Assembly (NCBI RefSeq): GCF_003856835.1
Contig: NZ_CP034145.1
Coordinates: 1,922,001 to 1,986,000 of the forward strand
Direction: 5' to 3'
DNA length: 64,000 nucleotides
From: Haloplanus aerogenes
Lineage (GTDB): Archaea > Halobacteriota > Halobacteria > Halobacteriales > Haloferacaceae
Shown: positions 11,108 through 26,492 of the stretch, piece by piece
How the letters are laid out: the number at the start of each line of letters is the position of its first letter
How positions within the stretch are numbered: the stretch's first letter is position 1
Notes under the pieces: model-generated
Told to the model about the DNA's origin: nothing
What the model saw: only the letters and a program-made list of their open reading frames with translations
Database searches by the model: none
Program-made: the position numbers and the translations under genes

Positions 11108-11181
11108 GGGCGTGTGGCCTAGCGGACTAGGGCAAGAGGTTCCTAACCTCTAGATCGCGGGTTCGAATCCCGCCACGCCCG
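11108..11181 (+). tRNA. tRNA-Arg(CCT)
   Basis: The 74 bases fold as a tRNA: acceptor GGGCGTG pairing with CACGCCC, anticodon stem AGAGG/CCTCT around loop TTCCTAA (anticodon CCT, codon AGG), and T-arm GCGGG-TTCGAAT-CCCGC. No intron and no encoded CCA. The 3' end is the attachment site of the element that follows: the last 22 bases and four more are duplicated at 26321-26346. Confidence 0.95.
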
Positions 11182-11185
11182 TCTC
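11160..11185 (+). repeat. attL: 26-bp direct repeat at the tRNA 3' end
   Basis: The sequence from GGTTCGAATCCCGCCACG through CGTCTC (11160-11185) is repeated exactly at 26321-26346. The flanks beyond differ. Integration into the T-arm/3' end of a tRNA by a tyrosine recombinase leaves exactly this arrangement, and the integrase lies beside the distal copy. Confidence 0.9.
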
Positions 11186-11594
11186 GTTCAGTAGCGATTC
11201 GAATTGACCGGACGGCGTCGGGGCGTTCAGTCTTTCTTTATATACTCCCGCTTTACCGAGCAGCGAGAGTTGAACCCGCGTCGAGTCGGGGGTCGGCTCC
11301 GTCTGGCGTTCGTATTGAATCATGCGTGCCAGATGGTTATGTTTTGTTACCCCACATGATTCTCAGCCCATGTGTAGTATGAACTGATTATTCGCTGTAT
11401 AACGACAGGCTTCGGTTGACCGTCGTGAGACCGCCTCCACAAATCTCTAGAGGAAACCAAGTGGTTTGGATCGTAATCAGCTCGCATCTGCTCGAAACGG
11501 GGCAGAGACGGTGTCACAGGTAATAGGATGAGTTATACTGAAGTCCCGTAATCAGGGATCTATTGAGATAGCGAGGGGAACGTAGAACATGAGT
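11186..11594. other. Non-coding stretch at the left end of the element
   Basis: No convincing gene was found in these ~410 bases. A TTTATATA run at about 11237-11244 is promoter-like, but no credible start codon follows. The stretch lies between attL and the stop of a leftward gene. Confidence 0.5.
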
Positions 11595-12677
11595 TCACCT
11601 CCCACCGATGGTATATCCCTTTCCTTCCGCCTGCGAGACCTCTGCCTCCAGATCCTTACGAACATCATCGAAGGCAGCCACAACTTCGTGTATCAGCTTG
11701 GATAGAGATGTGGAAACGAGTTTCCATTCGAGTTCATCTTCCGCCGACAAGAGGGCATCAGTCACTTCTACCAATGCTAGAGCACTAAATTGAGCGGGGT
11801 CGGTGAATCCAGTATTCGACGGTCCCGACAGCATCACTTCGCTCTGCGTTTCCTCTGTCAACCCCATCCGGAACAGCGTCCCTTTTGAGCCACCATGGAC
11901 TGTATTACTGGCAAACGCAAAGAACGGTTCATACCTATCTAGATCGACATCCTCTGCGATTGTACGTCTCGATGGATTTTTGTCTAACTCCGGAGCTGCC
12001 CACCCGTAGGAAGTTTTGAAAACGCCTCCGTACTCCTCGACCTTACTCTCGAATCGTTCTTTTAACGCTGCCCACTCCTCTTCCGGTACTGGTGCGAACC
12101 CGAGCTCCTCACGGTGATCTCGATATAATTCAATCTCTCGATAATCGTCAACGATTTTGTGTTCAAGAAAGCGCCTCGCTATGTCTTCTCCATACTTTTC
12201 GATAAATCGGGATGATACCGCTATTTCGTAGAGTGCCCGCCACCGGGCAAATGCCCCATCTGCATATCCGGTGCGCATCAGAGAAAGTACCTCCCGAGCT
12301 ACTTGACAGGCCCGAGCGTGCAGTCTCATCAGTGCGGAGAAGAGCGGATCATCCTCTGGTACCTCATTTTCAATGAGCTGTTGTTTCAGCGCAACTCCAG
12401 ATTGATGGTTCAGAATAATAAGGTATTCAAACAGGTTGAAAGCGTCTCCCCACCGTTTGTGTAACCGCTCTTCGAATCCTCCGCGTGTTTCTGCCTCCTC
12501 GTTTATTACTGCAGGATATTTTTCTGCATACTCAGTAAGGAGGCGATCAGTGTACTCACGTACGAGCCATTCCACCCCAGTCACATCTTTGGGGATATCT
12601 GGATCAGAGTCTAAGGCCTTCTCAACAGCCTCTGCAAACCAGTCTGGGTGGACCATTGGAGAGTGTTTGAAAAGCAA
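11595..12677 (-). CDS. DUF5677-like protein
   Basis: A soluble, mostly helical protein of about 353-360 residues (a start at 12656, MVHPDWF, is also possible). The central stretch RLHARACQVAREVLSLMRTG followed by ADGAFARWRALYEIAV fits the DUF5677 core, a helical family of unknown function found on mobile elements. A later AFASNTVHGGSKG carries a conserved-looking histidine. It is the leftmost gene of the element. A defence or abortive-infection role is possible from context only. Confidence 0.65.
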   Translation of the reverse strand: MLFKHSPMVHPDWFAEAVEKALDSDPDIPKDVTGVEWLVREYTDRLLTEYAEKYPAVINEEAETRGGFEERLHKRWGDAFNLFEYLIILNHQSGVALKQQLIENEVPEDDPLFSALMRLHARACQVAREVLSLMRTGYADGAFARWRALYEIAVSSRFIEKYGEDIARRFLEHKIVDDYREIELYRDHREELGFAPVPEEEWAALKERFESKVEEYGGVFKTSYGWAAPELDKNPSRRTIAEDVDLDRYEPFFAFASNTVHGGSKGTLFRMGLTEETQSEVMLSGPSNTGFTDPAQFSALALVEVTDALLSAEDELEWKLVSTSLSKLIHEVVAAFDDVRKDLEAEVSQAEGKGYTIGGR

Positions 12678-12960
12678 CCTGTGTAACTTTTCGCACTCGA
12701 TGAAAGTCTGTATGGATTGATAGATTGTGGTGCCAATATCGATCAGTCCATATCCAACTTCACAGCGGTCGTGGTCAATCGTTGTTCTTCAGCTCACTCT
12801 AACAGATTCGTTCTCAGGTCATGCAAATCCCTGTAGCCACCACTAACTGGTCTCGAAATCTCGTTGGAGTGTTTCTCTCAGTCGTTCGCTCAAATCTCAC
12901 TCAGCCGTCCCAGTGACAGCGTCGACAATCCTTGCGTCGAGAGTGATCATCGTTCCCCGC

Positions 12961-13317
12961 TCAGAAGTCGTCGAGGGTGTAGCTACCCGTCTCATTGTCT
13001 CTGTTCCAATTAACATTTGTATCCCCACGGGTTCCCTCGTTCGAATCCGTAGTCGCCCTGCTGCCTCCATCAACCTCCTCGTCGTCAATCAATTCCTCGA
13101 CAGTCTCTTCGTCGAATTTTTCCAGAGCGTGCTTCTTATTCCAGACTTCGGCGTGAGCGAGAATGTGCGACTCCTCCGTAGAATATCCCTCACGCTCGGC
13201 AGCGTTGAACGCCTCACGGTACTCGGGGTTGCTTACCATCGTGTCCCAGTTCGGGTCTACGTTCAGATCCTTCCCTTTCCGTTCGAACTCCTCGTCACTT
13301 GCTCTATGATCTACCAT
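12961..13317 (-). CDS. Acidic hypothetical protein
   Basis: A 118-residue protein (GTG at 13329 would add four residues). It is strongly acidic with haloarchaeal composition. Residues 15-85 are helix-rich (NPEYREAFNAAEREGYSTEE, then ILAHAEVWNKKHALEKFDEE) and the last 40 residues are low complexity. No family recognised. It stands alone with about 280 bp of empty sequence downstream. Confidence 0.6.
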   Translation of the reverse strand: MVDHRASDEEFERKGKDLNVDPNWDTMVSNPEYREAFNAAEREGYSTEESHILAHAEVWNKKHALEKFDEETVEELIDDEEVDGGSRATTDSNEGTRGDTNVNWNRDNETGSYTLDDF

Positions 13318-13507
13318 TCTTGTATTCACTCCCTTGCTGCGGGATTCGCTAGATGTCTGGACTATCTCGCCCTGCTGACGGCTACGGTACGCTAATTCCG
13401 TTATTCTCGTCTCTCTAGTACTAACCCAGACTACTTGTTAGTTTTCGCTGACCTATCAGAGAATCCTGTTCTATCACTTTCCATGCCATCGGTCAGAGAT
13501 TTCTGTG

Positions 13508-13744
13508 ATGGGATTGGTGCCGGAGACGAAGGTTCGAATCTTGGAGGCGTTGGACGAGGAGCAAGCGCATGGGTATCTCCTCGCCGAGCGTCTCGATCTC
13601 TCCCACGGGTACATCTACACTCACCTGAAGGAGCTTCGTCAAGAGGGCATGATCGAGGTCGTCGACGAATCCGAGGGAAAGAAGATCTACGGGCTGACGG
13701 AAAACGGCGAGTACCTGTTGAAAGCGCTCATCGATCGAAATTGA
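13508..13744 (+). CDS. Small winged-helix DNA-binding protein
   Basis: A 78-residue single winged-helix domain: helix-turn-helix at residues 13-45 (YLLAERLDLSHGYIYTHLKE), then a wing and the YGLTENGEYLLKAL tail seen in PadR/MarR-like haloarchaeal regulators. A GTG codon directly upstream (13505) could also start it. It lies on the element, facing a 650-bp non-coding stretch with three copies of a 12-bp palindrome, so it is a candidate element regulator. Confidence 0.8.
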   Translation: MGLVPETKVRILEALDEEQAHGYLLAERLDLSHGYIYTHLKELRQEGMIEVVDESEGKKIYGLTENGEYLLKALIDRN

Positions 13745-13870
13745 GACACTACTTCTCGTTCGACTACCCACCCCGCGAAATAGCAGAGAATCACTCCCGC
13801 TCTCTGGACGAATGCCTTTTGAGAGCGCTGCACGGGAGTTTCAGGTTTCGGTATCGATTGGGTGCTTTGC

Positions 13871-13882
13871 CTGAAGGTTCAG
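13871..13882 (+). repeat. Palindromic motif CTGAAGGTTCAG, copy 1
   Basis: A near-perfect 12-bp dyad (5-bp arms around GG). Identical or reverse-complement copies occur at 14088, 20991 and 22910, all within the integrated element and outside genes. Confidence 0.7.
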
Positions 13883-14087
13883 CCCATGGGAGCTATCACT
13901 CCGAAGTCGAATGGGGGCTTATCAAGAGATCAACCTGACACAACCTGACATCCCCTTGATGTTGTTTTTACCCGTCTGAACCCTCAGTGAGTTCGTATGC
14001 TATCCGTGGTGAATGGGTAGTGTCCGTTTGAGCCATCAGATACCTTCGGGAGGTGCTCCGGTGACTTGCCTCCCCGTGACATCCTGA

Positions 14088-14099
14088 CTGAACCTTCAG
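14088..14099 (-). repeat. Palindromic motif CTGAAGGTTCAG, copy 2 (inverted)
   Basis: Reads CTGAACCTTCAG on the plus strand, the exact reverse complement of copy 1. It is 217 bp from copy 1 in the same non-coding stretch. Confidence 0.7.
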
Positions 14100-14390
14100 C
14101 CAGACCAGTGCGATACTCCGATCGACGTGTGCTGACTGCTTCCCGTATCGAAGGGCGATTCCGATGAAATCGGAGATAGCTCTCGTCGTCTCGATCAGAG
14201 TGCATCCCACGTCGCTCAGATGCGCTCAAATCTCTGAGAAGCCGAGCTACTCCGGTTTCTCACACCTCGATCACTAATCTACGTGGTTTCCATCGTTCCC
14301 ATCGAAGTCTGCTGTAGAAGGCCCTTGGAACGCCTCCAGAGACCCAAATGAGGACTTGACCGTGATTCGAGAAGACTCACGGAAGACTAC

Positions 14391-14789
14391 CTACGTCTGG
14401 ACGTTGAACTCCCCAGCATACCACCCGGCACCTTCTTGATCGATACTCCCACCGAAGATCGTGATGAGGCGGATGTCCGTATCGTCGATCGGGAGCACCC
14501 CGCCGTTCCACGTCTCCACGTCCTCGACCACGAACTGGATCACGGGACTCTGGTTCATGATGAAGTTGACGCGATCGCGGAGAAGTTCGTGGACGTGCTC
14601 GGCAGCATCCTTGGGATCGTCCGAAGCCGCGAGGTAGTCGTCCAGTCCGGTGACGGTCACGTCGAGCGGGAGTTCTTCCTGCTGGTCGACGTGCCGGAGG
14701 AACTCAACGATGCTCAGTTCGTCGTCGTAGACACCGTGCTTCGAAGCGGCGTCCTGCGACATCACGTGGTAGCCGATTTCCAGCGTCAT
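14391..14789 (-). CDS. Small acidic protein at the end of the BREX-like operon
   Basis: A 132-residue acidic protein with no recognised family. Visible features are an N-terminal strand (TLEIGYHVMSQ), a helix-rich middle with an AAEHVHELLRDRVNFIM segment and a beta-rich C-terminal third (IRLITIFGGSIDQ). It starts 49 bp after the methylase stop on the same strand, so it is the fourth gene of the operon. It could be a regulator, inhibitor or specificity factor; nothing in the sequence decides. Confidence 0.65.
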   Translation of the reverse strand: MTLEIGYHVMSQDAASKHGVYDDELSIVEFLRHVDQQEELPLDVTVTGLDDYLAASDDPKDAAEHVHELLRDRVNFIMNQSPVIQFVVEDVETWNGGVLPIDDTDIRLITIFGGSIDQEGAGWYAGEFNVQT

Positions 14790-14838
14790 CGATCAGTTGG
14801 CTGATACTGTGTCGGTTTGGTTCATAAACCTGTGCCGC

Positions 14839-17505
14839 TCAGAAGTCGTCGAGGTCGAGCTGTTCGTCGGTTCGCTCCTCGACGTAGTCGGCGATGTCCG
14901 CGTACTCGTCGTCGTTCTCGATCTCCGCGAGCCGTCGAAGCGCGGCGATCGACTCGCTGTCGCTCCACTTCCCGAACTCCTGTGCGAGGCGATCAGCCTC
15001 GTAGAGATATCGGAGATAGTGCGCCCGATCGATCGCCAGCGGATCGCGCTTCCCTTCGATGGCTTCGGCTCGCTTCTCGGGGGAGAGCACGGCCAACTGA
15101 TTCCCCTCCTGCTGGAGCAGGTGCTCCGTGACGAGTTCGGCGACATCGACACCCCTCGTCCGGAGATCCTTGTTCAGCGAGTTGTAGGAGACGGTGTCGC
15201 CCCGTCCGAGCACGTAGGTCAGATAGACGGCACTGAGGGCGTCCATCTCGTCGCTGAGGGTCTGGATACGCTCTTCCATCAACTGCTCGTCGACGATGTC
15301 GCGGATCGTCCCTACTGCGTCGTCGACCGACATCTCGCTCCCCTCGTGGGTGACGTTCGGGAAGTGCCGGGAGTACACTTCGAGGCACTTGCCCATCGTC
15401 ACGGCGAAGATGTCCCCCTGTGTGAGCCGCGAGCCACTCTCTTCGAGGCGGGTGATCTCCTCCTCGGCCCGGAAGTAGATCTCGTCCTCCAGCGAGCGCC
15501 AACTGACCGTTTCGGGGTCGTCAACCCGATCCCGACACACCACGATCATGTCGTACTCGATGTTGGCCTTGTCGTGGATGTGCGTCGATCCGCGCATCTC
15601 TCCACGAATGGGATATAGCGCGGTGATGTAGAAGCCCGCTTCGAGCACGGACTTGAGTACCGTGCTCCACCCTTCCGGATCTTTGTGGTGGAAGGTGAAG
15701 GCCATGATCCCGTCGTCCTTGAGCTTCTGATTCGCCTGATTGAAGACGTTCGTCAGTCCCGTGACGAAGTGATCCTCGTCGCGGTAGGTGTCGACGCTGT
15801 CCTCGCCTGCGGGGTCGCTTACCACTTCGCTGGCCTTCGGAGTGAGCTCAGCGGTGAAGTGATCGTACTCGTCTTCGAGCACCTGCTTGAGCCAGACGTA
15901 GTAGAAGTCCGCCGTCTCGGAGTACATCACGTTGTCAAAGTACGGTGGGTCGGTGATGACAGCGTCAACGCTGTCGTCCTTGACGGGGAGGTACTCCGAA
16001 GTCCCACAGCGGAGGTGGACGTTGTAGGTCGCGTCCTCTCGACCCTCGACGGGGTCGCCGATCCGGTCGGGATCGTCGGTCACAAAGCCCTCGATCTTGC
16101 CGACGCCGTCGCGCTGTTTCGTCTCGCCGTCTTCGACGTATTTCTCGTAGGGGTTCTGGCAGAACTCTTTGCCCGCTCGCATCTTGTCGAACTCGCCAGA
16201 GAACGTTCCCCGACCATACTCCGTACCCCAGATGTTGTTTTCGATCGGCGTAGGCCGGGCAGTTATCGTATGCCGCTTGTAGATTCCTTCAAGCTTGTTT
16301 GCCGTCCGATTGTACTCGCACAGAATGTTGTTGAACTCTAACGAACTAGAGAATGCGAGCAGCAGGAACTCCTTGACGTTCTGATTTTCGAGGCTATCGA
16401 TCTCACTCAGAAGCTTCGAGAGACAGATCAACTGCCGGGCGTTGAACATCTGATCGTACCGCTCGAAGCCATGATTGCGGATTCGATCTGAACTTCCCCG
16501 ATACCGTTCCGTTGTCGGAATTGGGAGTTCGTCCTGCTTTGCTTCGAGTTCCGCCTCTGCCTCGGCGAACAGGTCGCGGTCAAATTCGGTAGCCGGCTTG
16601 TATCCTTTCTCGTCTGTCTCGGGACAGTAGTATTCGACCGCAAAGAGCGACTTCTCGGCCTTGCCGAATCGTTCGACGCTCTCGATGATCGACATTTCGG
16701 GGTGCTCGTCGCAGTGGGGACAGGTGTAGCTCCCACGAGAGATGTTACCAGCGTCTTTTGGAACGTATTCGTGTGTGCATTCGGGACAGGTGGTGTCCGT
16801 TCGGTAATCGTCGGTCTCGAAGACGTGCCAGCAGTCCGGACAGACGACGTTGTAATGGTCATCCTTTGACGACCGAGCGTTCGAGAGACGGTAGTCCTTG
16901 AACAGCGCGACATCCTCGCCGCAGTTCCGACAGGGGAGTTCGTCCACCCAGAAGTAGTACATCGCGTCGGCGTACTCGTCGCAGTGGGGACACTCAGTCC
17001 GGTAGTAGTCCTGAATTTCCTCGCCAACGCTCGCTTCGAGTTCCTCGAACGCAGCGTCGAGGTCGTCCAGATCGACCGGCTCGACTTCCTTCTTGACGAC
17101 GAACCACGCGACGGGGTTCAGTTCGCTCCCGATGGCGTTACATCCCAGACGAAGCGACTCGACGATGCTCGTTCCGCCGCCCATGAACGGATCGAGCACG
17201 GTCTTGCCGTCGAAGTCGACATCTTCGAGATAGTAGTCCCAGAGCGCGTCCGGGTTCTCCCAGTCGATCTCCGGAAGTCCATTACCCTCTTTGAACGTCG
17301 ACTGTCGCTCGCCTCCGACGGACATCTCTTCGTCGGCGAGGGAGTAGAGCAGCATCGTCCGGAAGACCGAGCCGAGCCGCCGCGCCCACCACTTGTGCAT
17401 GGTGTAGACGGGGCGGTAGTACCGCTTGGCGTGGGCTTCCCTCTCCGCGATTTCGTTCACCTGATCGATGGGGAACGAGATTTCGATTGGGCGTCGATCC
17501 GTCAT
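14839..17505 (-). CDS. DUF1156 zinc-ribbon DNA adenine methylase (PglX-like role)
   Basis: An 888-residue protein. The N-terminal DUF1156 region has the family's YTMHKWWARRLGSVFR run. The SAM-binding motif is DPFMGGGTS near residue 105. Five CxxC pairs between about residues 175 and 280 (CPHC, CRNC, CPDC, CPEC, CPHC) form zinc ribbons. The catalytic motif is TDPPYFDNV near residue 520, and the C-terminal 250 residues are helical. The order and DPPY motif indicate N6-adenine methylation of DNA. In the operon it would fill the self-marking role PglX has in BREX. The start at 17505 overlaps the upstream stop (ATGA) and has GGAGG eight bases before it. Confidence 0.88.
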   Translation of the reverse strand: MTDRRPIEISFPIDQVNEIAEREAHAKRYYRPVYTMHKWWARRLGSVFRTMLLYSLADEEMSVGGERQSTFKEGNGLPEIDWENPDALWDYYLEDVDFDGKTVLDPFMGGGTSIVESLRLGCNAIGSELNPVAWFVVKKEVEPVDLDDLDAAFEELEASVGEEIQDYYRTECPHCDEYADAMYYFWVDELPCRNCGEDVALFKDYRLSNARSSKDDHYNVVCPDCWHVFETDDYRTDTTCPECTHEYVPKDAGNISRGSYTCPHCDEHPEMSIIESVERFGKAEKSLFAVEYYCPETDEKGYKPATEFDRDLFAEAEAELEAKQDELPIPTTERYRGSSDRIRNHGFERYDQMFNARQLICLSKLLSEIDSLENQNVKEFLLLAFSSSLEFNNILCEYNRTANKLEGIYKRHTITARPTPIENNIWGTEYGRGTFSGEFDKMRAGKEFCQNPYEKYVEDGETKQRDGVGKIEGFVTDDPDRIGDPVEGREDATYNVHLRCGTSEYLPVKDDSVDAVITDPPYFDNVMYSETADFYYVWLKQVLEDEYDHFTAELTPKASEVVSDPAGEDSVDTYRDEDHFVTGLTNVFNQANQKLKDDGIMAFTFHHKDPEGWSTVLKSVLEAGFYITALYPIRGEMRGSTHIHDKANIEYDMIVVCRDRVDDPETVSWRSLEDEIYFRAEEEITRLEESGSRLTQGDIFAVTMGKCLEVYSRHFPNVTHEGSEMSVDDAVGTIRDIVDEQLMEERIQTLSDEMDALSAVYLTYVLGRGDTVSYNSLNKDLRTRGVDVAELVTEHLLQQEGNQLAVLSPEKRAEAIEGKRDPLAIDRAHYLRYLYEADRLAQEFGKWSDSESIAALRRLAEIENDDEYADIADYVEERTDEQLDLDDF

Positions 17506-18401
17506 CGCTGAACCTCCAGACGAGGGGTAAGACATTCCATGAGACTCAGACCACCGTGTTGGTAGACGCTGTATTTCCCGCGAACCGGCCACGTGTACCG
17601 ACCGACCGGCATATAGTAGCCGTCCGCCTCGACCGCCAGCCGATCCTCGACGAGGTCGTCGGCGTCCGCTTGGTCGACGCCGACGAATCGCTGACCGCCG
17701 AAGGTGTCTCGAAGCCTGTTCTTCTCGTGCTCGCTGATGGCAAATGAGTAGCCTGACTCCTCCCGGACGTAGCCGTGATCCGCCCCGACGATGATCCGAT
17801 CCGTGTCGAGTTGGTCGAGGATCGATCGGAACACGCGAAGGGAGTCGTCGTAGGCGTCCTCGACGGACGACAACTCGGTCTTCCCCTCCTGAATGTTCTC
17901 CAGCAGGGCGTCGGGATACCGACTCCAGACGAGGCGTTCATCGCCCGAGAGCGAGGGATCAAGGTCTCGCACCGTCGCGGAGGGATACTCCCGATCCATA
18001 TCCGCGTATCCGACGCGCTTCTTGTACGGCGTCGTCTCCGAGGGCACCGTCGCATACGAGTAACTCACCTTCACGTCGTATCCATCCGACTCTAGTGCGG
18101 CGGCGAACAGTGACGCCTCGCGGACGCTCATCGCGTCCATGACGAGGAAGGCTCCGTCGTCGGGTATCTCGATCGATGCCTCGTTAACACAGCGCCACGG
18201 AAGCACCTCGCTGTAGAACTCCCAGTAGATGTCGACCAGCGTCCGCTCCAGTTCGACCGATGCCCACTCTCTGTCGTGGTCGTAGTGATCGCTTGGACCT
18301 TCAGACGGTGGCCACCAGATGTCCCAGAGGGCATCCCAGACGACATCCACGGGATCGTCCGCCTCGACCAGCGACTTCGGCCACTCACTCGTCAGCGTCA
18401 C
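17502..18401 (-). CDS. Short PglZ-like (alkaline-phosphatase-fold) protein
   Basis: A 299-residue protein starting at GTG 18401, 17 bp inside the 3' end of the ATPase gene. Three hallmarks of the PglZ/alkaline-phosphatase superfamily appear in order: VMDAMS near residue 90 (metal aspartate and nucleophile serine), VGADHGYV near 215 (metal-binding DHG) and QHGGLSLMECLTPRL near 283 (the family's C-terminal GG-S-x-x-E-x-x-x-P). PglZ proteins are essential, mechanistically unclear components of BREX. This one is much shorter than the usual 650-850 residues and seems to keep only the catalytic core. Middle gene of the operon. Confidence 0.68.
   Translation of the reverse strand: MTLTSEWPKSLVEADDPVDVVWDALWDIWWPPSEGPSDHYDHDREWASVELERTLVDIYWEFYSEVLPWRCVNEASIEIPDDGAFLVMDAMSVREASLFAAALESDGYDVKVSYSYATVPSETTPYKKRVGYADMDREYPSATVRDLDPSLSGDERLVWSRYPDALLENIQEGKTELSSVEDAYDDSLRVFRSILDQLDTDRIIVGADHGYVREESGYSFAISEHEKNRLRDTFGGQRFVGVDQADADDLVEDRLAVEADGYYMPVGRYTWPVRGKYSVYQHGGLSLMECLTPRLEVQR
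17511..17522 (-). promoter_or_regulatory. Ribosome-binding site of the DUF1156 methylase
   Basis: On the minus strand the sequence before the ATG at 17505 reads TCTGGAGGTTCAGCG. GGAGG is a strong Shine-Dalgarno at normal spacing, inside the 3' end of the PglZ-like gene. It decides the start at 17505 against the in-frame codon at 17592. Confidence 0.65.
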
Positions 18402-20886
18402 GCTCGATCACCACCGTTGCCTCGATCTTCTCGCCGTCCGGAAGTCCCTCGACGAACTCGATGAGTTCCGACTTCGAGAGGTCGTCGACATCGTAGGACA
18501 GTCGGACGTGCTTTACAGTGTCCCTCGTTTCGTTGATCCGCGACTCCGCAGTGCTCCGAAGCACTCGCGGGGAGTTACCTTCGAGAGATACCTCGACAGT
18601 TTCGGTGACGCGATCGGGCTCATCCGGTTCGTCGGGACCGGTCTCTCCCCTTTCGTCCGATTTCTCTTCACCTCCCTCGTCGTCGCGGTCGCTGCCCCAG
18701 TCGGTGATTCCGCCACCCGAGTCATCACCGCCTGTCTCGTCCTCGTCGTCCGTCTCTTCGCGGAACACGGAGTCGGGAAGGTTGTCGGGGTGACGGATGG
18801 TCATCTCGTCCTCGATCTCCGAAGGATACTGGCCGAGATCACCGACGTAGAAGTTGGCCCGATTGCCTTCGAGCACGATGTCTCCCTTTCGCTGGAGTTC
18901 GCTTACAGCCGAGTAGAACACCCCTTCGTCGAGGAGTACGGGAAGCCGCCGGAACTGGAGAAAGTCGTTGAGCAGCGATCCAACGCGGATGCCGCCCTCG
19001 TTCTCCTTGACTCGGCCAACGATCTCCTCGCCGACGTAGGTTGTGTCCCTGCCGATCCGCTCCTTGACCGCTTCGATGTCGGGGTCGACCGTGATCCGAC
19101 GCATTCGGAGCTCACCATCCGACGTGCCACTCCACTTGACCCACTTTCCGTAGCGATCCTCCAGTTCCTTGCGTAGCTGCCTGTACTCGTCCCGGATCAG
19201 TGGCTCCAGTTCTCCCTGATCGTCGTCGACTTTGCCACGAAGGTTCTCGGCTCCGAACACCCGTGCGGCCTTGCTGACGATGTCGTCGTCTTCGAGGACT
19301 CGCTGCTTCGGCGTTATGAACTGGACGGTGTTCTGATACCGTCGCTCCTCGAAGAATTCACTCAGTTCCGAGGTAAGCGTCCCGTTGGAGATGTTCTCAA
19401 GCGTCACCACGAACGTCTGCTGTTTCTCGTCCGGCACGTCGTCGTAGCCGTAGACGTAGACTTCGCCGTCGAACACCTCGTCTCGGACAACATCGACGAG
19501 CTTCCCGATCGCTTGATCCCGATTCTCTTCGAGGATGCGTTCCTGCTCCCGGGTGATCAGCGCGGTCAACTTCGGGTCTTCGGTGATGAAGTAGCTCCCA
19601 TCCTGCTTGTCGAGATAGTGAGCCGTGCCGTACAGTCCCTCCAGCGTCATGTGAAGCCGGTCGACGGTCGTCTCGTCGGGCTTGAACGTCCCAAGTAGGC
19701 ACTGGGTTGTCGACGCCATTTGAGAGCGGTCGTCGAGCGTGTAGAGCAGGATCACCTGAAGCAGGTCGACTCCGTTTTCGGTCTCTCCAAGCTCTGCCTT
19801 GTCCGATGTGAATCGGTCGAACAGCGTTCGGTTGATTCCCCGGAATGCTCGCGGATTGACATCCGAGGTGACGACGAGATCCGTCTCGTCGTGTACCTGA
19901 CGGACGGTGTCGGCGAGGACGTTCATCACGCCACGGACGTTCTGTCGCTCGCGGGCCGCTTCGTAGATACTGTCGAGCAGGTCGAGCAACGCCGGATGGA
20001 AGGGATAGGTCTCGACCATCCGATTCTCGTAGCGTTTCGGCTCGTCAATCTCGATCGGATACTCGTAGCTGTCGACGTATCGCTCGACGACTGACCGAAC
20101 CGCGCTCTCGTCGATGTCATCTGGCGTCCCCTCGAACAAGCGATGGATGATGATCCGCTCGCGGTCACCCGTGGCGTTCAGGTCTTCGGCGTGTGGGTTC
20201 GTCCGGTCGAGGATCTCCTTCAGCCGGTCGCTTCTGTCGAGGAGCGTGATGAAAGCGAACAGGTTCTCGTTGGGATCGTTGGCGACTTCGAGGAGATTCT
20301 GGAGGAAGAAGCGATTGCGTTCGAGTAGGTCCCGATCGGCATCCTCGGAGAACGATTCCCACCACGATTCAATCTCGTCGAAGAACACGCCGAAGGTGCC
20401 GTCCTCAACTAGCTTCTCGACGTGATCGGTCGTGGGATACCGATCTATCTCCTCCAGTACGTCCTCTCGACCGGCACTACGGTAGATCGGTTCCCAGATC
20501 AGATCGGCGTCGGTCTCGCTCGTCGAGATGATGGCGGCATCTGAGTCACTCGGTAGATCGATCGGGATGTCCCACTCGTCGGCCCACGACTGAGCGACAG
20601 TCGGGTGGTTGAACATATGGTAGAGCACGAGTAGCCCGTGGGACTTCCCGGAGCCATACGGCCCGGTGAGCATGATCCCGCCTTGACTGTCTCGACCGTC
20701 GATCTTGTCGGCGACTCGGTCGAAGACGTTTCGGAGTGCATTCGAGGGGTACGTGGCGGCGAGCAGTCGGTTCGGATCGTTTTCGAGGCGCTCGTCGTCA
20801 CCAGTGACCTTGTGGGCTTGGAGGACTCCTTGGAATCGACCTTCGAGGACTTCGGCACGAGGAGTGAGAAGTTCGGAGATTTGCAT
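18385..20886 (-). CDS. DUF499-type P-loop ATPase (BrxC/PglY-like)
   Basis: An 833-residue protein. The N-terminal AAA+-like module has Walker A TGPYGSGKSHG near residue 78 and Walker B VFFDEIESWW near 168. The opening lines up with DUF499/BrxC proteins (LTPRAEVLEGRFQ). Further winged-helix-like segments follow, and residues about 690-770 form an acidic low-complexity linker (DEDETGGDDSGGG) before a small C-terminal domain. Typical BrxC/PglY proteins are about 1,200 residues, so this is compact. First gene of the operon; a divergent small RHH gene and palindrome copy 3 lie upstream. Confidence 0.85.
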   Translation of the reverse strand: MQISELLTPRAEVLEGRFQGVLQAHKVTGDDERLENDPNRLLAATYPSNALRNVFDRVADKIDGRDSQGGIMLTGPYGSGKSHGLLVLYHMFNHPTVAQSWADEWDIPIDLPSDSDAAIISTSETDADLIWEPIYRSAGREDVLEEIDRYPTTDHVEKLVEDGTFGVFFDEIESWWESFSEDADRDLLERNRFFLQNLLEVANDPNENLFAFITLLDRSDRLKEILDRTNPHAEDLNATGDRERIIIHRLFEGTPDDIDESAVRSVVERYVDSYEYPIEIDEPKRYENRMVETYPFHPALLDLLDSIYEAARERQNVRGVMNVLADTVRQVHDETDLVVTSDVNPRAFRGINRTLFDRFTSDKAELGETENGVDLLQVILLYTLDDRSQMASTTQCLLGTFKPDETTVDRLHMTLEGLYGTAHYLDKQDGSYFITEDPKLTALITREQERILEENRDQAIGKLVDVVRDEVFDGEVYVYGYDDVPDEKQQTFVVTLENISNGTLTSELSEFFEERRYQNTVQFITPKQRVLEDDDIVSKAARVFGAENLRGKVDDDQGELEPLIRDEYRQLRKELEDRYGKWVKWSGTSDGELRMRRITVDPDIEAVKERIGRDTTYVGEEIVGRVKENEGGIRVGSLLNDFLQFRRLPVLLDEGVFYSAVSELQRKGDIVLEGNRANFYVGDLGQYPSEIEDEMTIRHPDNLPDSVFREETDDEDETGGDDSGGGITDWGSDRDDEGGEEKSDERGETGPDEPDEPDRVTETVEVSLEGNSPRVLRSTAESRINETRDTVKHVRLSYDVDDLSKSELIEFVEGLPDGEKIEATVVIERDADE

Positions 20887-20990
20887 GGCGGTGTATGCTT
20901 GGTCTGTCGATAAGAGCGAGGATGAATAATAGGTGGGGTTGGCTTCGAATGCGAGAAATTCGAATCTTTATCAGAATTTGATAGGTGTGT

Positions 20991-21002
20991 CTGAAGGTTC
21001 AG
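20991..21002 (+). repeat. Palindromic motif CTGAAGGTTCAG, copy 3
   Basis: This copy extends to a 16-bp dyad, GTCTGAAGGTTCAGAC (20989-21004). It lies in the 199-bp divergent region between the BREX-like operon and the small RHH gene, a natural operator position. Confidence 0.75.
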
Positions 21003-21085
21003 ACGCCTCTGTGCGGCGTTTGAACCCGTATGGGGGTAAGATTTGTACGCATAACTGATAAGTTGAATCATACCCAAGGGGTGAT

Positions 21086-21232
21086 ATGGGTAATCCAGAG
21101 GGATACACGACGATCCGCGCCCATCGAGACGCCCGTGACGAGGCTCGCCACATAAAATCGCGGCTCGACCTGTCGTGGAACGAGTTTCTGCAACAGGCGG
21201 CCGATGCACTCGATCCCGATAGTAACGACTGA
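21086..21232 (+). CDS. Small ribbon-helix-helix-like protein (48 aa)
   Basis: A 48-residue frame, MGNPEGYTTIRAHRD..., ending DALDPDSND. A short strand (GYTTIRAH) is followed by a helix (DARDEARHIKSRL), the turn DLSWNEF and a second helix, which is the ribbon-helix-helix layout of small haloarchaeal plasmid regulators. AAGGGGTGAT just before the ATG is a possible ribosome-binding site. It is divergent from the BREX-like operon and precedes the replication protein. Confidence 0.7.
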   Translation: MGNPEGYTTIRAHRDARDEARHIKSRLDLSWNEFLQQAADALDPDSND

Positions 21233-21360
21233 GCAAATAACACAAAAGCCGAGGGAAGACCCCCGACGGACAGGCTGAGGGTGGGATGCCTCATCCTGTT
21301 CTTCGAATCCATGTCGGTTAAACAGCATGGTTGGTCGACCCTCGTCTGCACCCCCAGACG

Positions 21361-22842
21361 ATGTCTACCACAACACCAAGTGAACAAGAGGCACAGAACG
21401 CAAAGGAAGCTATCGAAGGACACCTACGGTCAGCAGGGGTAGGGCATACTCGGAGCGCTACTATCCCTGACGGAAGCAAGTCCTGTTACGATCACGACGA
21501 CCAGCATTATCCATCTGCTATCTCCGGCAATTACGCAGTCTTTGGCGGTGATAACCTCGTTCTTCTTGATATTGATGTCTCAACAGACACCCTTCCAAAA
21601 TGGGTCAAGGAGCTTCCGCAGACGTTTGTCGTCGAGACCCCTCACGGCGGCTATCATCGTTACTACATTGTGGAGGACAGTGTGAAAATTACTAACTCTG
21701 TACTTGAGTGGGGGAGTGTACGGTATGAAGGTCAATACGTAGTTGGTCCCGGCTCAGTTATCGATCATTCCGAGTGTAACGACCGAAAGTCTGACTGTCC
21801 CGGTAACGGTGTCGGAAGATACGAAATCAGGGCTGATCGACCGATAGCGACACTTTCTGAAGACCAACTTGAAGCTCTTCGAGATGTTTGTCACTCCGAC
21901 AGTGGTAGCGACAGTACGCGGACAGAATATGGTAACACGAGGGTTGATCTTCCTGACGAGACCGTTGCTGATGAGGGCGAAAAGTACCTCTGCACTGACT
22001 TCGCGCGACGAGCAACGGAACTCGCTGTTGAGGACGTGATGGACCTCCTTCGAGGGGGAACCGGCTCATATGAACTCAGACGCGATGATGAGACTGGGAT
22101 AGACCAGAGTGCGGCCGACTATTATGCTCTGGAGATGCTCTATGGTGCGTTCCAATTTGAGGGAAAAGATGAGGACGATGCTCGACGCTTCACACTAGCA
22201 GTATTCAAGCGGTACTGCATCAAGAACCGATTCGACAAAGCTGGGAATCTCCGTAAGTGGCTCCGAAAGGGAGAAAGGTACCTCCTGGAACAGATGGACG
22301 CTGTTCAGCAAAAGTTCGATATAGGGAAATGGACCCGTTGGAAGCGGCGCAAAAACGAAGATGGATTCGACGTTAATGACAACAGACCGTGGATTGATCC
22401 AACTGTCGATGGCTCTCCGAGCGACATCACTGAAGATACTGTTATCGTATCACTCCACTATTTAACCAGCGACGCAAGCCTCGAAGTACTCGCTCAATTG
22501 TACGAGATTGATCTTTCCGCAGCCCCTCCTGTGGGGAAATGTGTACCCCCTTCGAACCGCTCGATGGGCCCGGAGAGCGTTCAGGGGGATACCTCGCGCT
22601 ATCCTACTGCGAAGGAGATCGGCGCATTTGCTGCAAAAATTAATCCAGAGCGAAAGGCATCATATTTCGAGGAGACGGTCAAGAAACTCTCACGTGAGAC
22701 AAGAGTGGTTGCACACGCATACTGTCCAAACAGGGACAACGGAGAACGTCACGTCTATTATCCGAGTTCGGATGACGATCCTGAAGATGCTCGGTGGATA
22801 AAGATCAAAGGTCAGAAGCAGATCATGGGGAAAGACGTTTGA
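21361..22842 (+). CDS. Primase-polymerase (AEP)-like replication protein
   Basis: A 493-residue protein. The N-terminal 180 residues match the bifunctional primase/polymerase fold: NYAVFGGDNLVLLDIDV (metal-binding D-x-D), ETPHGGYHRYYIV and GQYVVGPGSVI, in the order seen in plasmid and viral Prim-Pol proteins. The remainder is helical with a WLRKGERYL stretch; no helicase Walker motif is visible. It likely primes or initiates replication of the element when excised. ATG 21361 is chosen over 21331 because Prim-Pol similarity begins later. AT-richer than the flanking chromosome. Confidence 0.8.
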   Translation: MSTTTPSEQEAQNAKEAIEGHLRSAGVGHTRSATIPDGSKSCYDHDDQHYPSAISGNYAVFGGDNLVLLDIDVSTDTLPKWVKELPQTFVVETPHGGYHRYYIVEDSVKITNSVLEWGSVRYEGQYVVGPGSVIDHSECNDRKSDCPGNGVGRYEIRADRPIATLSEDQLEALRDVCHSDSGSDSTRTEYGNTRVDLPDETVADEGEKYLCTDFARRATELAVEDVMDLLRGGTGSYELRRDDETGIDQSAADYYALEMLYGAFQFEGKDEDDARRFTLAVFKRYCIKNRFDKAGNLRKWLRKGERYLLEQMDAVQQKFDIGKWTRWKRRKNEDGFDVNDNRPWIDPTVDGSPSDITEDTVIVSLHYLTSDASLEVLAQLYEIDLSAAPPVGKCVPPSNRSMGPESVQGDTSRYPTAKEIGAFAAKINPERKASYFEETVKKLSRETRVVAHAYCPNRDNGERHVYYPSSDDDPEDARWIKIKGQKQIMGKDV

Positions 22843-22909
22843 ATCCACTCTTTGGATACGTCTGAACTTCAGGTGAAATGCTCTCTGTTGCCGTCGAGTT
22901 GGGTTCTCG

Positions 22910-22921
22910 CTGAAGGTTCAG
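22910..22921 (+). repeat. Palindromic motif CTGAAGGTTCAG, copy 4
   Basis: An exact copy between the convergent ends of the replication gene and the EVE-like gene. A shortened variant, CTGAACTTCAG, lies 38 bp upstream at 22862-22872. Confidence 0.7.
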
Positions 22922-22926
22922 ACGAG

Positions 22927-23394
22927 TCAAATCTCGAATTGTCGAATCGCCCGTTCTGTCGGTCGGTTATCTGATACCCGCCAGAGCCCTTGCGGCCAGA
23001 AGTTGCTCTCGTAGCCGAGAACATTGTTGACATCTTCACGATCGACATCTATCTCTTCGTATTCTTCAACGGCGAACACATCGATAGCAGGGCCTCCATT
23101 CCAAAATTCGTCGCGAACGTATTCCGTGTGCCAAAACGGACCAACTTGGCCTTTCGCTTGGTATCTGCTCGTACTGTTGCGGTAGATCAATAGGGGGTCT
23201 CCAGTCTCCATGCGTTCGAGATTCCTCCGGTTACGCTCCCAGATACCTTGTTCTGGATCAGTTCGCACACCCCAGACACGTGCTCTGTCAGGAAACTCGT
23301 CGGGCTTCTGTGTTTGGTTACTGAGATTGATCGGTTCGGCGAGTGTCTGTTGAAACGACCGCTCGTCAACGGGGACAAGCCAGAGTTGAGTCAT
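22927..23394 (-). CDS. EVE/PUA-like domain protein
   Basis: A 155-residue protein with the PUA-superfamily (EVE/YTH/ASCH-like) pattern. A basic strand begins TQLWLVPV; then comes a W-x3-R-N-L-E-R-M-E-x-GD segment (WERNRRNLERMETGDPLLIY) and later WPQGLWRVSD. Such domains bind modified bases in DNA or RNA and occur alone or fused to restriction enzymes. On this element, beside a DNA methylase, a modified-DNA reader is plausible but unproven. It converges on the replication gene. Confidence 0.55.
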   Translation of the reverse strand: MTQLWLVPVDERSFQQTLAEPINLSNQTQKPDEFPDRARVWGVRTDPEQGIWERNRRNLERMETGDPLLIYRNSTSRYQAKGQVGPFWHTEYVRDEFWNGGPAIDVFAVEEYEEIDVDREDVNNVLGYESNFWPQGLWRVSDNRPTERAIRQFEI

Positions 23395-23474
23395 AGTTGA
23401 GTAGACTATGCTGTCGAACTTTAATTTCGAGGCTCTGTTGAGCTCCTCAATCGGAGATCGGTTTCAGTAGTCCT

Positions 23475-23494
23475 GCTGAATACAGAGCGCGAGT
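23475..23494 (+). repeat. Dispersed repeat GCTGAATACAGAGCGCGAGT, copy 1
   Basis: 20 bp identical to 40334-40353. The 15-bp core ATACAGAGCGCGAGT also occurs at 41722. Shorter GCTGAATACAG copies lie nearby at 23691 (inverted) and 23743. In both full copies GGCTCTGTYGA lies about 45 bp upstream (23430, 40290), as if both were remnants of one element. Confidence 0.75.
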
Positions 23495-23497
23495 CGG

Positions 23498-23821
23498 TCA
23501 ACGATACCGTCCGGACGCCGCCACAGCAACACCGATGCCAACAACGAACACTGCCGGGAGACTCATCCCGGAGAAGCCCTGTGTCGTCGCTATCGAGCCG
23601 ATAACGAGTCCGACCCCGATAGCGAGGATACCGACTGCCTCTATCCGATTCACGCCTGAATTCGCGTCTCTATACTCGTAAATGCATCCTCTGTATTCAG
23701 CACGCAGTTCCTGACACTGTCTGGGTAGTTCGTCGGATCTCTGCTGAATACAGGGAGCGAATTCAGCACTAACCACTATTAGTGTCTCACGAGATGTATG
23801 TGGCAAATTGTGTGAAAACAA
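23498..23821 (-). CDS. Possible small membrane protein (doubtful)
   Basis: An open frame of up to 107 residues with two hydrophobic segments at the C-terminal end (GILAIGVGLVIGSIA and AVFVVGIGVAVAA). Its 5' part overlaps the start of the rightward DUF2971-like gene and includes GCTGAATACAG repeat copies, so the true start is likely further in or the frame may be a remnant. No family recognised. Confidence 0.35.
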   Translation of the reverse strand: MFSHNLPHTSRETLIVVSAEFAPCIQQRSDELPRQCQELRAEYRGCIYEYRDANSGVNRIEAVGILAIGVGLVIGSIATTQGFSGMSLPAVFVVGIGVAVAASGRYR

Positions 23822-24618
23822 TTAATGACCTCAAGAGGAGATTGAGGTCAATGCCGTATATCGAGGACATACAACAGCTGGAGTTGGAGAATACATTTGA
23901 CATTGAGATTTCGGCTGATAAGACAATATGGCGGTACGTGTCATTTGAAAAGTTTTTGTCGTTGGTAAACTCGAGGGCCATCCATTTCCGTCAAGCCGAA
24001 CTCCTCAGTGATGAATACGAAGGTGAAATCCCTCCCAGAGAGGTCATACCCCACCCAGGGCTTGCTGAGTTATATGATGCGAACTCCTTGATAACACACA
24101 TCTCCAGTTGGTACATAGGTGACTCAGAATCTCAAGAGATGTGGGACGAATATGAAGAAGCAGATTTGTTGATCAAATCAGATTATCAGAGCTTCAGAGA
24201 TTCAATTAGTATTGACGATGAATTTGGTGTTCAGTTTGTTGAGGTAGATTATATCGACTGGACAGATGAAGAGTTAGGGTTGGTATCAGAACAGGATGGC
24301 ACCCTCTCAGGAGGCCTCCTAGATCCGTTTAAATACAAACGCGAAAAATTTGCCTTTGAGAGCGAGTTCAGAGCAATAGCCACCACAATAGGCACTCTGA
24401 GTGATATGGAGGAAAACAAAGGTGAGGTTGATTTCGGTGAGATGGTGGACAAATACCGTGAGCCAAACATCTTCGTGAGATCTGAGTTAGATACCCTAAT
24501 TGATGAAATCAGAGTTTCTCCCGAGTTAGGGGGATGGGTTGTGGAAGAAGTTAGTGAGTGGATGGACAGGGAATTTGGAATCGGAAATCAAGTCCGCCAC
24601 TCCAACCTCGCTGATTAA
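23794..24618 (+). CDS. DUF2971-like protein
   Basis: A 274-residue protein (a GTG at 23782 would add four residues). The middle has the DUF2971 pattern: WRYVSFEKFLSLVNSRAIHF then LLSDEYEGEIP, SSWYIGDSESQEMWDEY, and KREKFAFESEFRA. This family of unknown function is common on mobile and defence islands. The gene is markedly AT-richer than almost everything else in the window, suggesting recent acquisition from another source. Confidence 0.6.
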   Translation: MYVANCVKTINDLKRRLRSMPYIEDIQQLELENTFDIEISADKTIWRYVSFEKFLSLVNSRAIHFRQAELLSDEYEGEIPPREVIPHPGLAELYDANSLITHISSWYIGDSESQEMWDEYEEADLLIKSDYQSFRDSISIDDEFGVQFVEVDYIDWTDEELGLVSEQDGTLSGGLLDPFKYKREKFAFESEFRAIATTIGTLSDMEENKGEVDFGEMVDKYREPNIFVRSELDTLIDEIRVSPELGGWVVEEVSEWMDREFGIGNQVRHSNLAD

Positions 24619-24926
24619 TCAGGCACGGTTCTGTATTCTTTAGCAGTACTTCAAGCGTGAACGTGTGGGGTGCAGATCGACACTCTTGGATAACCCAGCA
24701 CTCACAAGGAAAGACCTGAAGCATCACGTTTGTATCAACAACCGAGTATTTCAGCAAAGCCATTTCTGACTGCCCGAATATTTAGTATCCGCTGCCATTT
24801 GAAAGAGTCCTCAATAATTGATCTGAGGCCCCATCGAATCAGAGAAAATTGTGTTCGCACTCTGAACGACTTACTTCGGCGAGGTCGGGGTCAGTCATTT
24901 CGGGTTTTGGTACTGGACACTGTCGG
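24619..24926. other. Non-coding stretch, nothing recognised
   Basis: About 308 bp between the DUF2971-like gene and a small leftward gene. Short open frames exist on both strands, but none has haloarchaeal composition or a recognisable domain. Confidence 0.5.
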
Positions 24927-25085: not shown

Positions 25086-25210
25086 GATTTGCTCTGTGGT
25101 ATCTGATAAACCGTGCTCAGGGTGGTATGCGGGACGTGGTCTGAGACACGAGGGGCAATCATCTAAGTCTATTCCAAGTCTCGCAGAAGGGCGATAGCGG
25201 GCCTTTCAGA

Positions 25211-26221
25211 CTACATCTCGTCGAGATACTCCCGACGCTGTTCCACCTTCACCTCCTCGCTCCGTCTGTCGTAGTGCTGGTCCAGCACCTCCTGACTGAC
25301 GTTCATACGGTCACTGACGACCTTCTCTGGCACGTCCTCGGTCAGGAAATGTGTGATCGCCCCGCGACGGACGGCGTGCGATGAAACCGACGATGGACAC
25401 TTGCTCGCGTGCCCGTGCTTCTCGGCTTCGCATTCGTCGGGGTCGCGGTCGTGGGGACAACCGCTTCCGTACTGACAGGGTCGCGTCCAGCGGTACACGA
25501 TGTCCCGTACCGTCGAGATGTGGGGACGGCCTTGCTTGGTCGCCAGTAGCGGCTCTCGCCCCTCGTCGTCGATAACGTCTGGACGTTCATACGCGAGCCA
25601 ATCTTCGACGACGGTGCAGGTCTCGGTGGTCAGCGCGATGTATCGCTCGCCGTCGTCCTTGTTCTTCAGCGGCGTAGCCTCTCTGTGCTGGACCTTCAGA
25701 CGCTCTTCGTCGGAGTCGTAGTCGTCGACATCGAGTGCCCGAACGCCGCCCGCCCTGACGCCCGTGCGCCAGAGAAGCCGGAGGAGGATGTGCTCCAGCG
25801 AGGCGTACTCGAAGCGCCGCAGGTGGCCGAGAATCTCCTCGGCTCGCTCGCTTTCGAGCATCACGTCCCGCTGGTTGTCGCTGCCCGAGAGCGTTGGCGA
25901 GAGCACCTTCTCGTGTAGGTCGGGCACGACGGCGTCGATGGACTCGCAGAAGCGAACGAACACCCGCACCGTGTCCATCTGGGTCTTCAGACTCGCCTTA
26001 GTCAGATCGCCGTCTTCCTGTCGCCAGAGCTTGTAGCGGTGCAGGTCACGCCCAGACAGTTCGTTGAGGTTATCAACATCTTCCTGCTGGCACCATCGGA
26101 GGAGGTGCTTGAGGCGATATTCGTGGGACTGGAGCGTCGATGATGCGACTTCGGGACGACGCTCGTGCAGGTACATCTGTACGGCTTCATCGGGTTCGAT
26201 GGGTTCGAGTTCGTCGGACAT
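25211..26221 (-). CDS. Tyrosine recombinase/integrase of the element
   Basis: A 336-residue integrase. Residues 10-100 form a SAM-like core-binding domain. The catalytic domain has the first arginine in WRTGVRAGGVRALDV near residue 158, H-x-x-R in SSHAVRRGAITHF near 290, and the nucleophile tyrosine in LDQHYDRRSEEV near 322. A cysteine/histidine-rich insertion precedes the HxxR box (CQYGSGCPHDRDPDECEAEK), typical of haloarchaeal plasmid and virus integrases. ATG 26221 is preferred, because the frame upstream runs into a hairpin region. It ends near attR and should catalyse recombination between the 26-bp repeats. Confidence 0.92.
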   Translation of the reverse strand: MSDELEPIEPDEAVQMYLHERRPEVASSTLQSHEYRLKHLLRWCQQEDVDNLNELSGRDLHRYKLWRQEDGDLTKASLKTQMDTVRVFVRFCESIDAVVPDLHEKVLSPTLSGSDNQRDVMLESERAEEILGHLRRFEYASLEHILLRLLWRTGVRAGGVRALDVDDYDSDEERLKVQHREATPLKNKDDGERYIALTTETCTVVEDWLAYERPDVIDDEGREPLLATKQGRPHISTVRDIVYRWTRPCQYGSGCPHDRDPDECEAEKHGHASKCPSSVSSHAVRRGAITHFLTEDVPEKVVSDRMNVSQEVLDQHYDRRSEEVKVEQRREYLDEM

Positions 26222-26268
26222 GGTTTGATCCCGTCGAACGCCAGACGAGCCGCCTCCTCTCGATCGCG

Positions 26269-26316
26269 CCACCGCGAGCGAAGCGAGCGGTGGTCAGTCG
26301 GGCCGTTAGGCCCGAC
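26269..26316. repeat. Two adjacent hairpins next to attR
   Basis: CCACCGC (26269-26275) pairs with GCGGTGG (26287-26293), and GTCGGGCC (26297-26304) pairs with GGCCCGAC (26309-26316) around GTTA. They sit immediately inside attR, upstream of the integrase. They could be recombination-directing or transcription-blocking structures. Confidence 0.6.
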
Positions 26317-26320
26317 GCGA

Positions 26321-26346
26321 GGTTCGAATCCCGCCACGCCCGTCTC
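26321..26346 (+). repeat. attR: duplicate of the tRNA-Arg 3' end
   Basis: An exact 26-bp copy of 11160-11185 (T-loop through discriminator base plus four bases). Only this part of the tRNA is present, so it is not a functional tRNA gene. Confidence 0.9.
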
Positions 26347-26492
26347 ACTCACGGTGTTCGTTTGACGGCCGTGGCGTAGTCCCCCTCGCTCCCTACGGTC
26401 GCTCGCGGGACTCCCGCCACGCCAATCCACCGCCGGCACCACCGACCCCGCAGCGGTATCGTCATACCCGTCCGGCCCCAACCCCGTGACAC

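What the first reader, a model, noticed from the sequence alone, without database searches (positions are those of the whole stretch)
14391..20886. Compact BREX-like operon: DUF499 ATPase, short PglZ-like protein, DUF1156 methylase and a small acidic protein
Seen: four leftward genes with tight overlaps (17-bp overlap, ATGA overlap, 49-bp gap). The ATPase has Walker A/B of BrxC/PglY type. The 299-residue second protein has D-x-M-S, DHG and the GG-S-x-x-E end typical of PglZ. The third is an N6-adenine methylase with five zinc-ribbon CxxC pairs. Known: ATPase + PglZ + adenine methylase is the conserved core of BREX anti-phage systems, and DUF499/DUF1156 genes recur in defence islands. Inference: this is a reduced BREX-related system with a half-size PglZ and no BrxA, BrxB, BrxL or helicase. 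The fourth small protein is uncharacterised.
Basis: partly seen in the sequence, partly recalled or inferred. Interest (0 to 1): 0.85.

Follow-up and report, generated by a model that had tools for sequence, protein, structure and literature searches.

The report
Helicase-free four-gene BREX-related defence operon
A haloarchaeal mobile island carries a four-gene, probably antiviral set (an ATPase, a small nuclease-like PglZ protein, a DNA methylase and a tiny helper protein) that recurs unchanged across distant archaea and bacteria and looks like the natural minimum of the BREX defence machinery, without the helicase that its described relatives have.

Summary
In detail: four intact leftward genes (ATPase, 299-aa PglZ, DUF1156 methylase, 132-aa acidic protein) with the stated overlaps, on a 15.1-kb island flanked by 31-bp repeats at a tRNA-Arg gene. 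The PglZ reading holds: Foldseek puts a moderate-confidence model next to PorX and BREX PglZ, and catalytic residues are invariant in 44 of 44 relatives. The order ATPase-PglZ-methylase-small recurs in 37 complete loci: two haloarchaeal clades (30 of 391 genomes), other Halobacteriota, Chloroflexota and Fuchsiella. None has a helicase in the operon; there is no conserved fifth gene. The closest described system is the Type-3 'BREX-Related' system (NAR, January 2026: DUF499 ATPase, DUF1156 methylase, standalone PglZ, iSTAND, SNF2 helicase), seen here with its helicase in five bacterial loci. On the PglZ tree the two architectures split with full support. The small protein sits in the iSTAND slot; its model most resembles P-loop folds (no single hit significant) and its profile matches the iSTAND profile above all 200 shuffles. 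Verdict: a new, helicase-free variant of a known kind, equivalent to the BREX B:C:Z:X core. Function is inferred, not shown. The paper's supplement, which may already list these loci, could not be read.

The parts
18385..20886 (-). DUF499-type AAA+ ATPase, 833 aa, with Walker A and B (the 'C' component, HmaC/BrxC-like)
   Evidence: Pfam DUF499 4.1e-11, PADLOC HmaC 1.6e-20, DUF6079 below its cut-off; alignment A3
17502..18401 (-). Standalone PglZ-domain protein, 299 aa (the 'Z' component, candidate nuclease)
   Evidence: Foldseek: PorX 7.6e-6 and BREX PglZ 9zn5 3.4e-5, both prob 1.00; D89, T123, D164, D208, H209 and H282 in 44/44 relatives; Pfam PglZ 18.2 bits, under the 25-bit cut-off
14839..17505 (-). 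DUF1156-type N6-adenine methylase, 888 aa, five CxxC pairs between motif I and DPPY (the 'X' component)
   Evidence: PADLOC HmaB 1e-49; NCBIfam DUF1156_antiphage 3.1e-31, under its cut-off; PHROG methyltransferase 1.3e-210; start set by homologues
14391..14789 (-). Small acidic protein, 132 aa, pI 4.05, no Walker A; probable iSTAND/BrxB-like component ('B')
   Evidence: AlphaFold2 pLDDT 86, pTM 0.81; nearly all top PDB neighbours are P-loop folds, none significant; profile match to Type-3 BR iSTAND above 200/200 shuffles; same operon slot
11108..11181 (+). tRNA-Arg(CCT), integration site of the island
11160..11190 (.). attachment repeat at the left end of the island (tRNA 3' end)
   Evidence: 31-nt direct repeat, 94% identical to 26321-26351
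26321..26351 (.). attachment repeat at the right end of the island
   Evidence: uninterrupted site in the same-genus genomes G334 (L139) and, nearly so, G232 (L135)
25211..26272 (-). Tyrosine recombinase (integrase) of the island carrying the operon
   Evidence: Pfam Phage_integrase 6.6e-10

Best explanation
The operon is a complete, mobile, helicase-free relative of the Type-3 BREX-Related (BR) system. Inferred working: the DUF1156 methylase marks host DNA at a specific site with N6-methyladenine. The DUF499 ATPase, bridged to PglZ by the small iSTAND-like protein, forms a complex that scans DNA and also licenses methylation, as the BrxB-BrxC-PglZ-PglX core does in BREX. On unmarked incoming DNA the ATPase changes state and PglZ, the only nuclease-like protein in the operon, nicks the DNA and blocks the invader. 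Shown here: gene content and order, fold and catalytic residues of PglZ, recurrence as a four-gene unit without a helicase, purifying selection, carriage on an integrated island. Inferred: defence activity, methylation specificity, complex formation, and PglZ as effector.
For: Four-gene order complete in 14 group-A, 16 group-B and 7 other loci in archaea, Chloroflexota and Fuchsiella. No other gene family occurs in more than 5 of these 37 neighbourhoods. Two weak helicase hits lie within the fetched flanks but about 4 kb away and outside the operon. 9 of 32 carrier genomes have no match at E<=1e-20 to the Type-3 BR/BrxHII helicase profile anywhere. PglZ fold and invariant catalytic residues; the aligned residues T538 and H741 of BREX PglZ are needed for full nuclease activity (PMC12205998). 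[quoted passage not shown] Small protein: P-loop-like neighbours, score 23.6 against iSTAND versus 11.4 +/- 1.9 for shuffled columns, 0 of 200 as high. dN/dS 0.09-0.14. Island with att repeats and a site without the island in relatives.
Against: No experiment shows defence or methylation for any helicase-free member. The PglZ model has mean pLDDT 62 and its Pfam score is below the cut-off. hhalign probability for small versus iSTAND is only 9% and no single Foldseek hit is significant. In BREX a PglZ nuclease mutant keeps part of its defence, so PglZ need not be the sole effector. On the ATPase tree the position of the helicase-bearing clade relative to the compact ones is unresolved.
Confidence: 0.68

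Rival explanations
1. It is an ordinary Type-3 BR system already counted in the published set, and the missing helicase has no functional meaning (lost in some lineages, or a dispensable accessory).
For: The paper reports Type-3 BR in 134 archaea, while every archaeal short-PglZ locus sampled here lacks the helicase, so the authors may have included such loci. The ATPase tree does not reject or establish a separate compact clade (p-AU 0.49).
Against: The paper states that Type-3 BR retains all three core components including the helicase. Here the helicase-bearing form is one fully supported side of the PglZ tree, and helicase-free loci span two domains and three phyla, so the absence is stable and not scattered.
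Confidence: 0.35
2. The system works with a helicase supplied in trans, for example by the host's BREX locus.
For: The window's genome has a BrxHII helicase in a separate BREX locus, and six of the 32 carrier genomes have long close matches to the profile.
Against: Nine of the 32 carrier genomes have no match to the helicase profile at E<=1e-20, and several other carriers have only general SNF2-type helicases of other lengths.
Confidence: 0.06
3. It is mainly a self-maintenance or epigenetic module of the mobile island (RM-like addiction or DNA marking), not a virus-restriction system.
For: It is carried on an integrated island and on plasmids in relatives. RM-like modules can stabilise the element that carries them (general knowledge).
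Against: Relatives of the same components (BREX, Type-1 BR/Hma) are experimentally antiviral according to the papers read. The two functions are not exclusive.
Confidence: 0.13
4. PglZ here acts on signalling oligonucleotides (as the PorX PglZ domain does) and tunes the ATPase, while another, unknown activity blocks the invader.
For: The best fold match is PorX in complex with pGpG; BREX PglZ cleaves cyclic and linear oligonucleotides.
Against: No cyclase or second effector is conserved in the neighbourhood; BREX PglZ also cuts double-stranded DNA.
Confidence: 0.08
5. It is a decayed fragment of a larger BREX system.
For: Fewer genes than BREX.
Against: dN/dS 0.09-0.14; identical gene set and order in 37 complete loci; DUF499 and not DUF6079 (BrxC) ATPase.
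Confidence: 0.02

Closest known systems
Type-3 BREX-Related (BR) system (Rakesh and Krishnan, NAR 2026, PMC12839542)
   Same: DUF499 ATPase, standalone PglZ, DUF1156 N6-methylase and a small protein in the iSTAND slot, in the same gene order
   Different: No BrxHII-like SNF2 helicase; shorter methylase (~880 versus ~1070 aa) and small protein (~130 versus ~166 aa)
Hma system / Type-1 BR (helicase-methylase-ATPase)
   Same: ATPase and methylase match HmaC (1.6e-20) and HmaB (1e-49)
   Different: No HmaA helicase-nuclease; has PglZ, which is not part of the described HmaABC set
BREX core (BrxB, BrxC, PglZ, PglX)
   Same: The same four functional roles if the small protein is iSTAND-like; [quoted passage not shown]
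   Different: DUF499 and not DUF6079 ATPase; PglZ has only its phosphodiesterase domain; methylase is not PglX; no BrxA, BrxL or helicase
PorX PglZ domain
   Same: Fold and catalytic residues
   Different: PorX is a response regulator in a two-component system, not in a defence operon

Membership tests
Type-3 BREX-Related system | DUF499 AAA+ ATPase | tested here: met
   Pfam DUF499 41.9 bits against a cut-off of 23
Type-3 BREX-Related system | DUF1156 N6-adenine methylase | tested here: met
   Pfam DUF1156 28.5 bits against 24, N6_N4_Mtase 48.6 against 26.7; DPPY
Type-3 BREX-Related system | Standalone active-type PglZ | tested here: met
   Fold and residues D89, T123, D164, D208, H209, H282; Pfam PglZ score itself is sub-threshold; activity not tested
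Type-3 BREX-Related system | SNF2 (BrxHII-like) helicase in the core locus | tested here: not met
   None in the window and none in the operon of any of 37 complete helicase-free relatives; present in five bacterial Type-3 loci
Type-3 BREX-Related system | iSTAND component | tested here: inconclusive
   Same operon slot; P-loop-like neighbours without a significant hit; profile score above 200/200 shuffles but hhalign probability 9%
BREX (Types 1-6) | BrxC of the DUF6079 type | tested here: not met
   DUF6079 12.1 bits against a cut-off of 23
BREX (Types 1-6) | Long PglZ with N-terminal P-loop-like domain | tested here: not met
   299 aa; profiles match only the C-terminal part of BREX PglZ models
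BREX (Types 1-6) | BrxA, BrxL or BrxH present | tested here: not met
   No PADLOC match to these for the other island proteins tested and no SNF2 helicase in the window
Hma / Type-1 BR | HmaA helicase | tested here: not met
   None in the window; the genome's SNF2 matches lie elsewhere, one in a BREX locus
Any antiviral defence system | Restricts virus or plasmid entry | not testable with these tools
   needs a virus challenge

The most novel reading that the evidence does not exclude
The four-gene set is a distinct, helicase-free BR type, old enough to be shared by archaea and bacteria, and is a naturally occurring minimal B:C:Z:X machine in which PglZ alone is the DNA-cutting effector, with no helicase, BrxL or other nuclease.
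Probability: 0.42. Interest if true: 0.72.

Novelty: new variant of a known kind. Interest (0 to 1): 0.56.

Why it matters
In BREX it is unsettled whether PglZ is the effector, because a nuclease-dead PglZ still leaves part of the defence. A system reduced to ATPase, PglZ, methylase and a BrxB-like bridge would let that question be tested directly. It would also show that neither a helicase nor BrxL is intrinsic to this way of defending. A ready test bed exists: Halorubrum lacusprofundi carries a close relative on pHLAC01, and a laboratory strain that lost this plasmid is sensitive to virus HRTV-DL1 (PMC10544981; confounded there by a CRISPR locus on the same plasmid).

Tried and rejected
Searching viral contigs with the small protein found nothing; the PglZ profile found only weak relatives in viral contigs, and the methylase profile one 31% match, none followed up. 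Phage records hold only 17%-coverage matches to the methylase, in Sulfolobus viruses, so this system was not found in sequenced phages. Helicase in trans was tested and not supported. 'Degraded BREX' was rejected on dN/dS and conservation. A conserved fifth gene was sought and not found. The order of events (helicase lost or gained) could not be resolved: the ATPase data neither reject nor establish one clade of compact systems (p-AU 0.49), and long branches affect the methylase tree. Sequence comparison of the small protein with iSTAND gave a low hhalign probability, so it was supplemented with shuffles and a structure model.
Full report
Observation. The four genes are present exactly as described, leftward on a haloarchaeal chromosome (G000:C1:1922001-1986000), with a 17-bp overlap, an ATGA overlap once the methylase start is set at 17505 by its homologues, and a 49-bp gap. 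The ATPase matches DUF499 and HmaC; the methylase matches DUF1156 and HmaB; the 299-aa protein matches PglZ only weakly by sequence (Pfam 18.2 bits, under the cut-off of 25); the 132-aa protein matches only an uncharacterised PHROG family.

Setting. The operon lies on a 15.1-kb island of 55% G+C in a 67% G+C region. The island is bounded by 31-bp repeats at the 3' end of tRNA-Arg(CCT) and carries a tyrosine recombinase and a primase-polymerase-like protein. In the same-genus genome G334 the tRNA runs directly into the window's right flank, with no island; in G232 they are separated by about 80 bp.

PglZ identity. A model built on seven relatives (pLDDT 62, pTM 0.66) finds PorX first (E 7.6e-6) and BREX PglZ (9zn5, E 3.4e-5), both at probability 1.00, then the phosphodiesterase superfamily. 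A profile of 15 relatives also finds PDB BREX PglZ (E 2.3e-10) and PorX. D89, T123, D164, D208, H209 and H282 are invariant in 44 of 44 short PglZs. By alignment, T123 and H282 correspond to T538 and H741 of E. fergusonii PglZ: the equivalent positions in the aligned PDB chain 9nv3 (T519 and H722) both differ from the published numbers by 19 residues (the mapping is an inference). T538A abolishes and H741A alters the nuclease activity (PMC12205998).

Recurrence. A search of 391 genomes of the class with the PglZ profile gives three tiers: 14 genomes with E<1e-140 (group A, with the window), 16 with E of 1e-42 to 1e-51 (group B), then long BREX PglZs and other proteins at E>1e-7. All 30 short-PglZ loci have ATPase-PglZ-methylase-small in that order; in one (L067) the ATPase frame is broken and genes are inserted. 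Seven more complete loci come from other Halobacteriota (L114, L115), Chloroflexota (L017, L116, L118, L119) and Fuchsiella (L006); two further loci run off their contig. No neighbouring gene family appears in more than 5 of the 37. A slot between PglZ and the methylase sometimes holds extra genes.

Comparison with the described system. In five bacterial loci (a Klebsiella plasmid, Ca. Tenderia, Aminobacter, Ensifer, one genome of the phylum of Fuchsiella) the order is ATPase (~910 aa, shortened in the Klebsiella plasmid copy), PglZ (~330), methylase (~1070-1200), a ~166-173-aa protein, and a SNF2 helicase (~925 aa). This agrees with the Type-3 BR system of Rakesh and Krishnan (PMC12839542), which is defined there by all three core components including a BrxHII-like helicase, a standalone PglZ in 569 taxa (134 archaea), and an iSTAND in 82%. 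The window's operon is the same minus the helicase. The paper's supplement could not be read, so whether its archaeal entries include helicase-free loci is unknown; every archaeal one sampled here is helicase-free.

Helicase in trans. The window's genome has a BrxHII helicase in a separate BREX locus. In 32 carrier genomes, 9 have no match at E<=1e-20 to the Type-3 BR/BrxHII helicase profile, so a helicase of that family is not a general requirement.

Phylogeny. The PglZ tree separates the helicase-bearing loci (plus one truncated Chloroflexota locus of unknown downstream content) from the 38 helicase-free ones with SH-aLRT 100. Groups A and B are single clades for all three genes, and Fuchsiella is next to A for all three, so the genes appear to travel together. 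The relation of the helicase-bearing clade to the compact ones is not resolved by the ATPase and is affected by long branches for the methylase.

The small protein. Its model is confident (pLDDT 86, pTM 0.81). No structural match is individually significant (best E 0.11), but by my reading of the names nearly all of the top 50 PDB matches are P-loop NTPase-like folds: RecA, RadA, KaiC, RFC, DnaA and others, many of them redundant entries. Only one of 20 family members shows a Walker-A-like string, probably by chance. The profile aligns in register with the Type-3 BR iSTAND (S-hh-FL ... LP ... V-GL-hL) and scores 23.6 against 11.4 +/- 1.9 for 200 column shuffles, none as high, although hhalign's own probability is 9%. 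It occupies the iSTAND slot. It is therefore probably the BrxB-like partner; this is an inference.

Mechanism. In BREX, BrxB bridges PglZ to the BrxC ATPase, and B:C:Z:X is needed for both methylation and restriction (PMC13326643). The window's four genes correspond one to one to that module. With no helicase, BrxL or second nuclease in the operon, PglZ is the natural candidate effector. Purifying selection on all four genes (dN/dS 0.09-0.14) shows the set is maintained. Nothing here tests function.

Verdict. A new variant of a known kind: real, intact, mobile, recurrent, and simpler than the described Type-3 BR system. Its interest is as a minimal natural system for asking whether PglZ is the effector.

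Noticed in passing
window 11160-26351: 15.1-kb integrative island at tRNA-Arg with 31-bp att repeats, a tyrosine recombinase, a Prim-Pol-like protein, a DUF5677 protein and a relative of the PADLOC candidate family PDC-S31; a related four-gene operon with a similar integrase (L062) lies near the same tRNA in genome G289.
   Followed up: partly
L022:448-9836 (G000:C1 ~1070447-1079835): The same genome holds a separate BREX locus with PglX (1439 aa), PglZ (716 aa) and a BrxHII helicase (969 aa).
   Followed up: partly
L014:5745-17994, L012:9950-22327, L011:9995-22671: Haloarchaeal DUF499 loci with two DUF1156-type methylases and a protein of the same small family, without PglZ or a recognised helicase; in L014 a McrBC-like pair lies next door. 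This may be a further DUF499 variant.
   Followed up: no
between PglZ and methylase in L017, L085, L116, L056: Recurrent slot for accessory genes: DUF3800, SIR2 plus HerA, Schlafen AlbA_2, an unnamed 148-aa protein.
   Followed up: partly
L063-L066: A D12-class adenine methylase (284 aa) sits beside the small gene in four group-A loci.
   Followed up: no
L085 (Klebsiella michiganensis plasmid pK518_KPC): Helicase-bearing Type-3 BR systems sit on widespread conjugative Klebsiella and related plasmids (28 Klebsiella records), here on a plasmid that also carries blaKPC-2; its DUF499 gene looks shortened at the 5' end.
   Followed up: no
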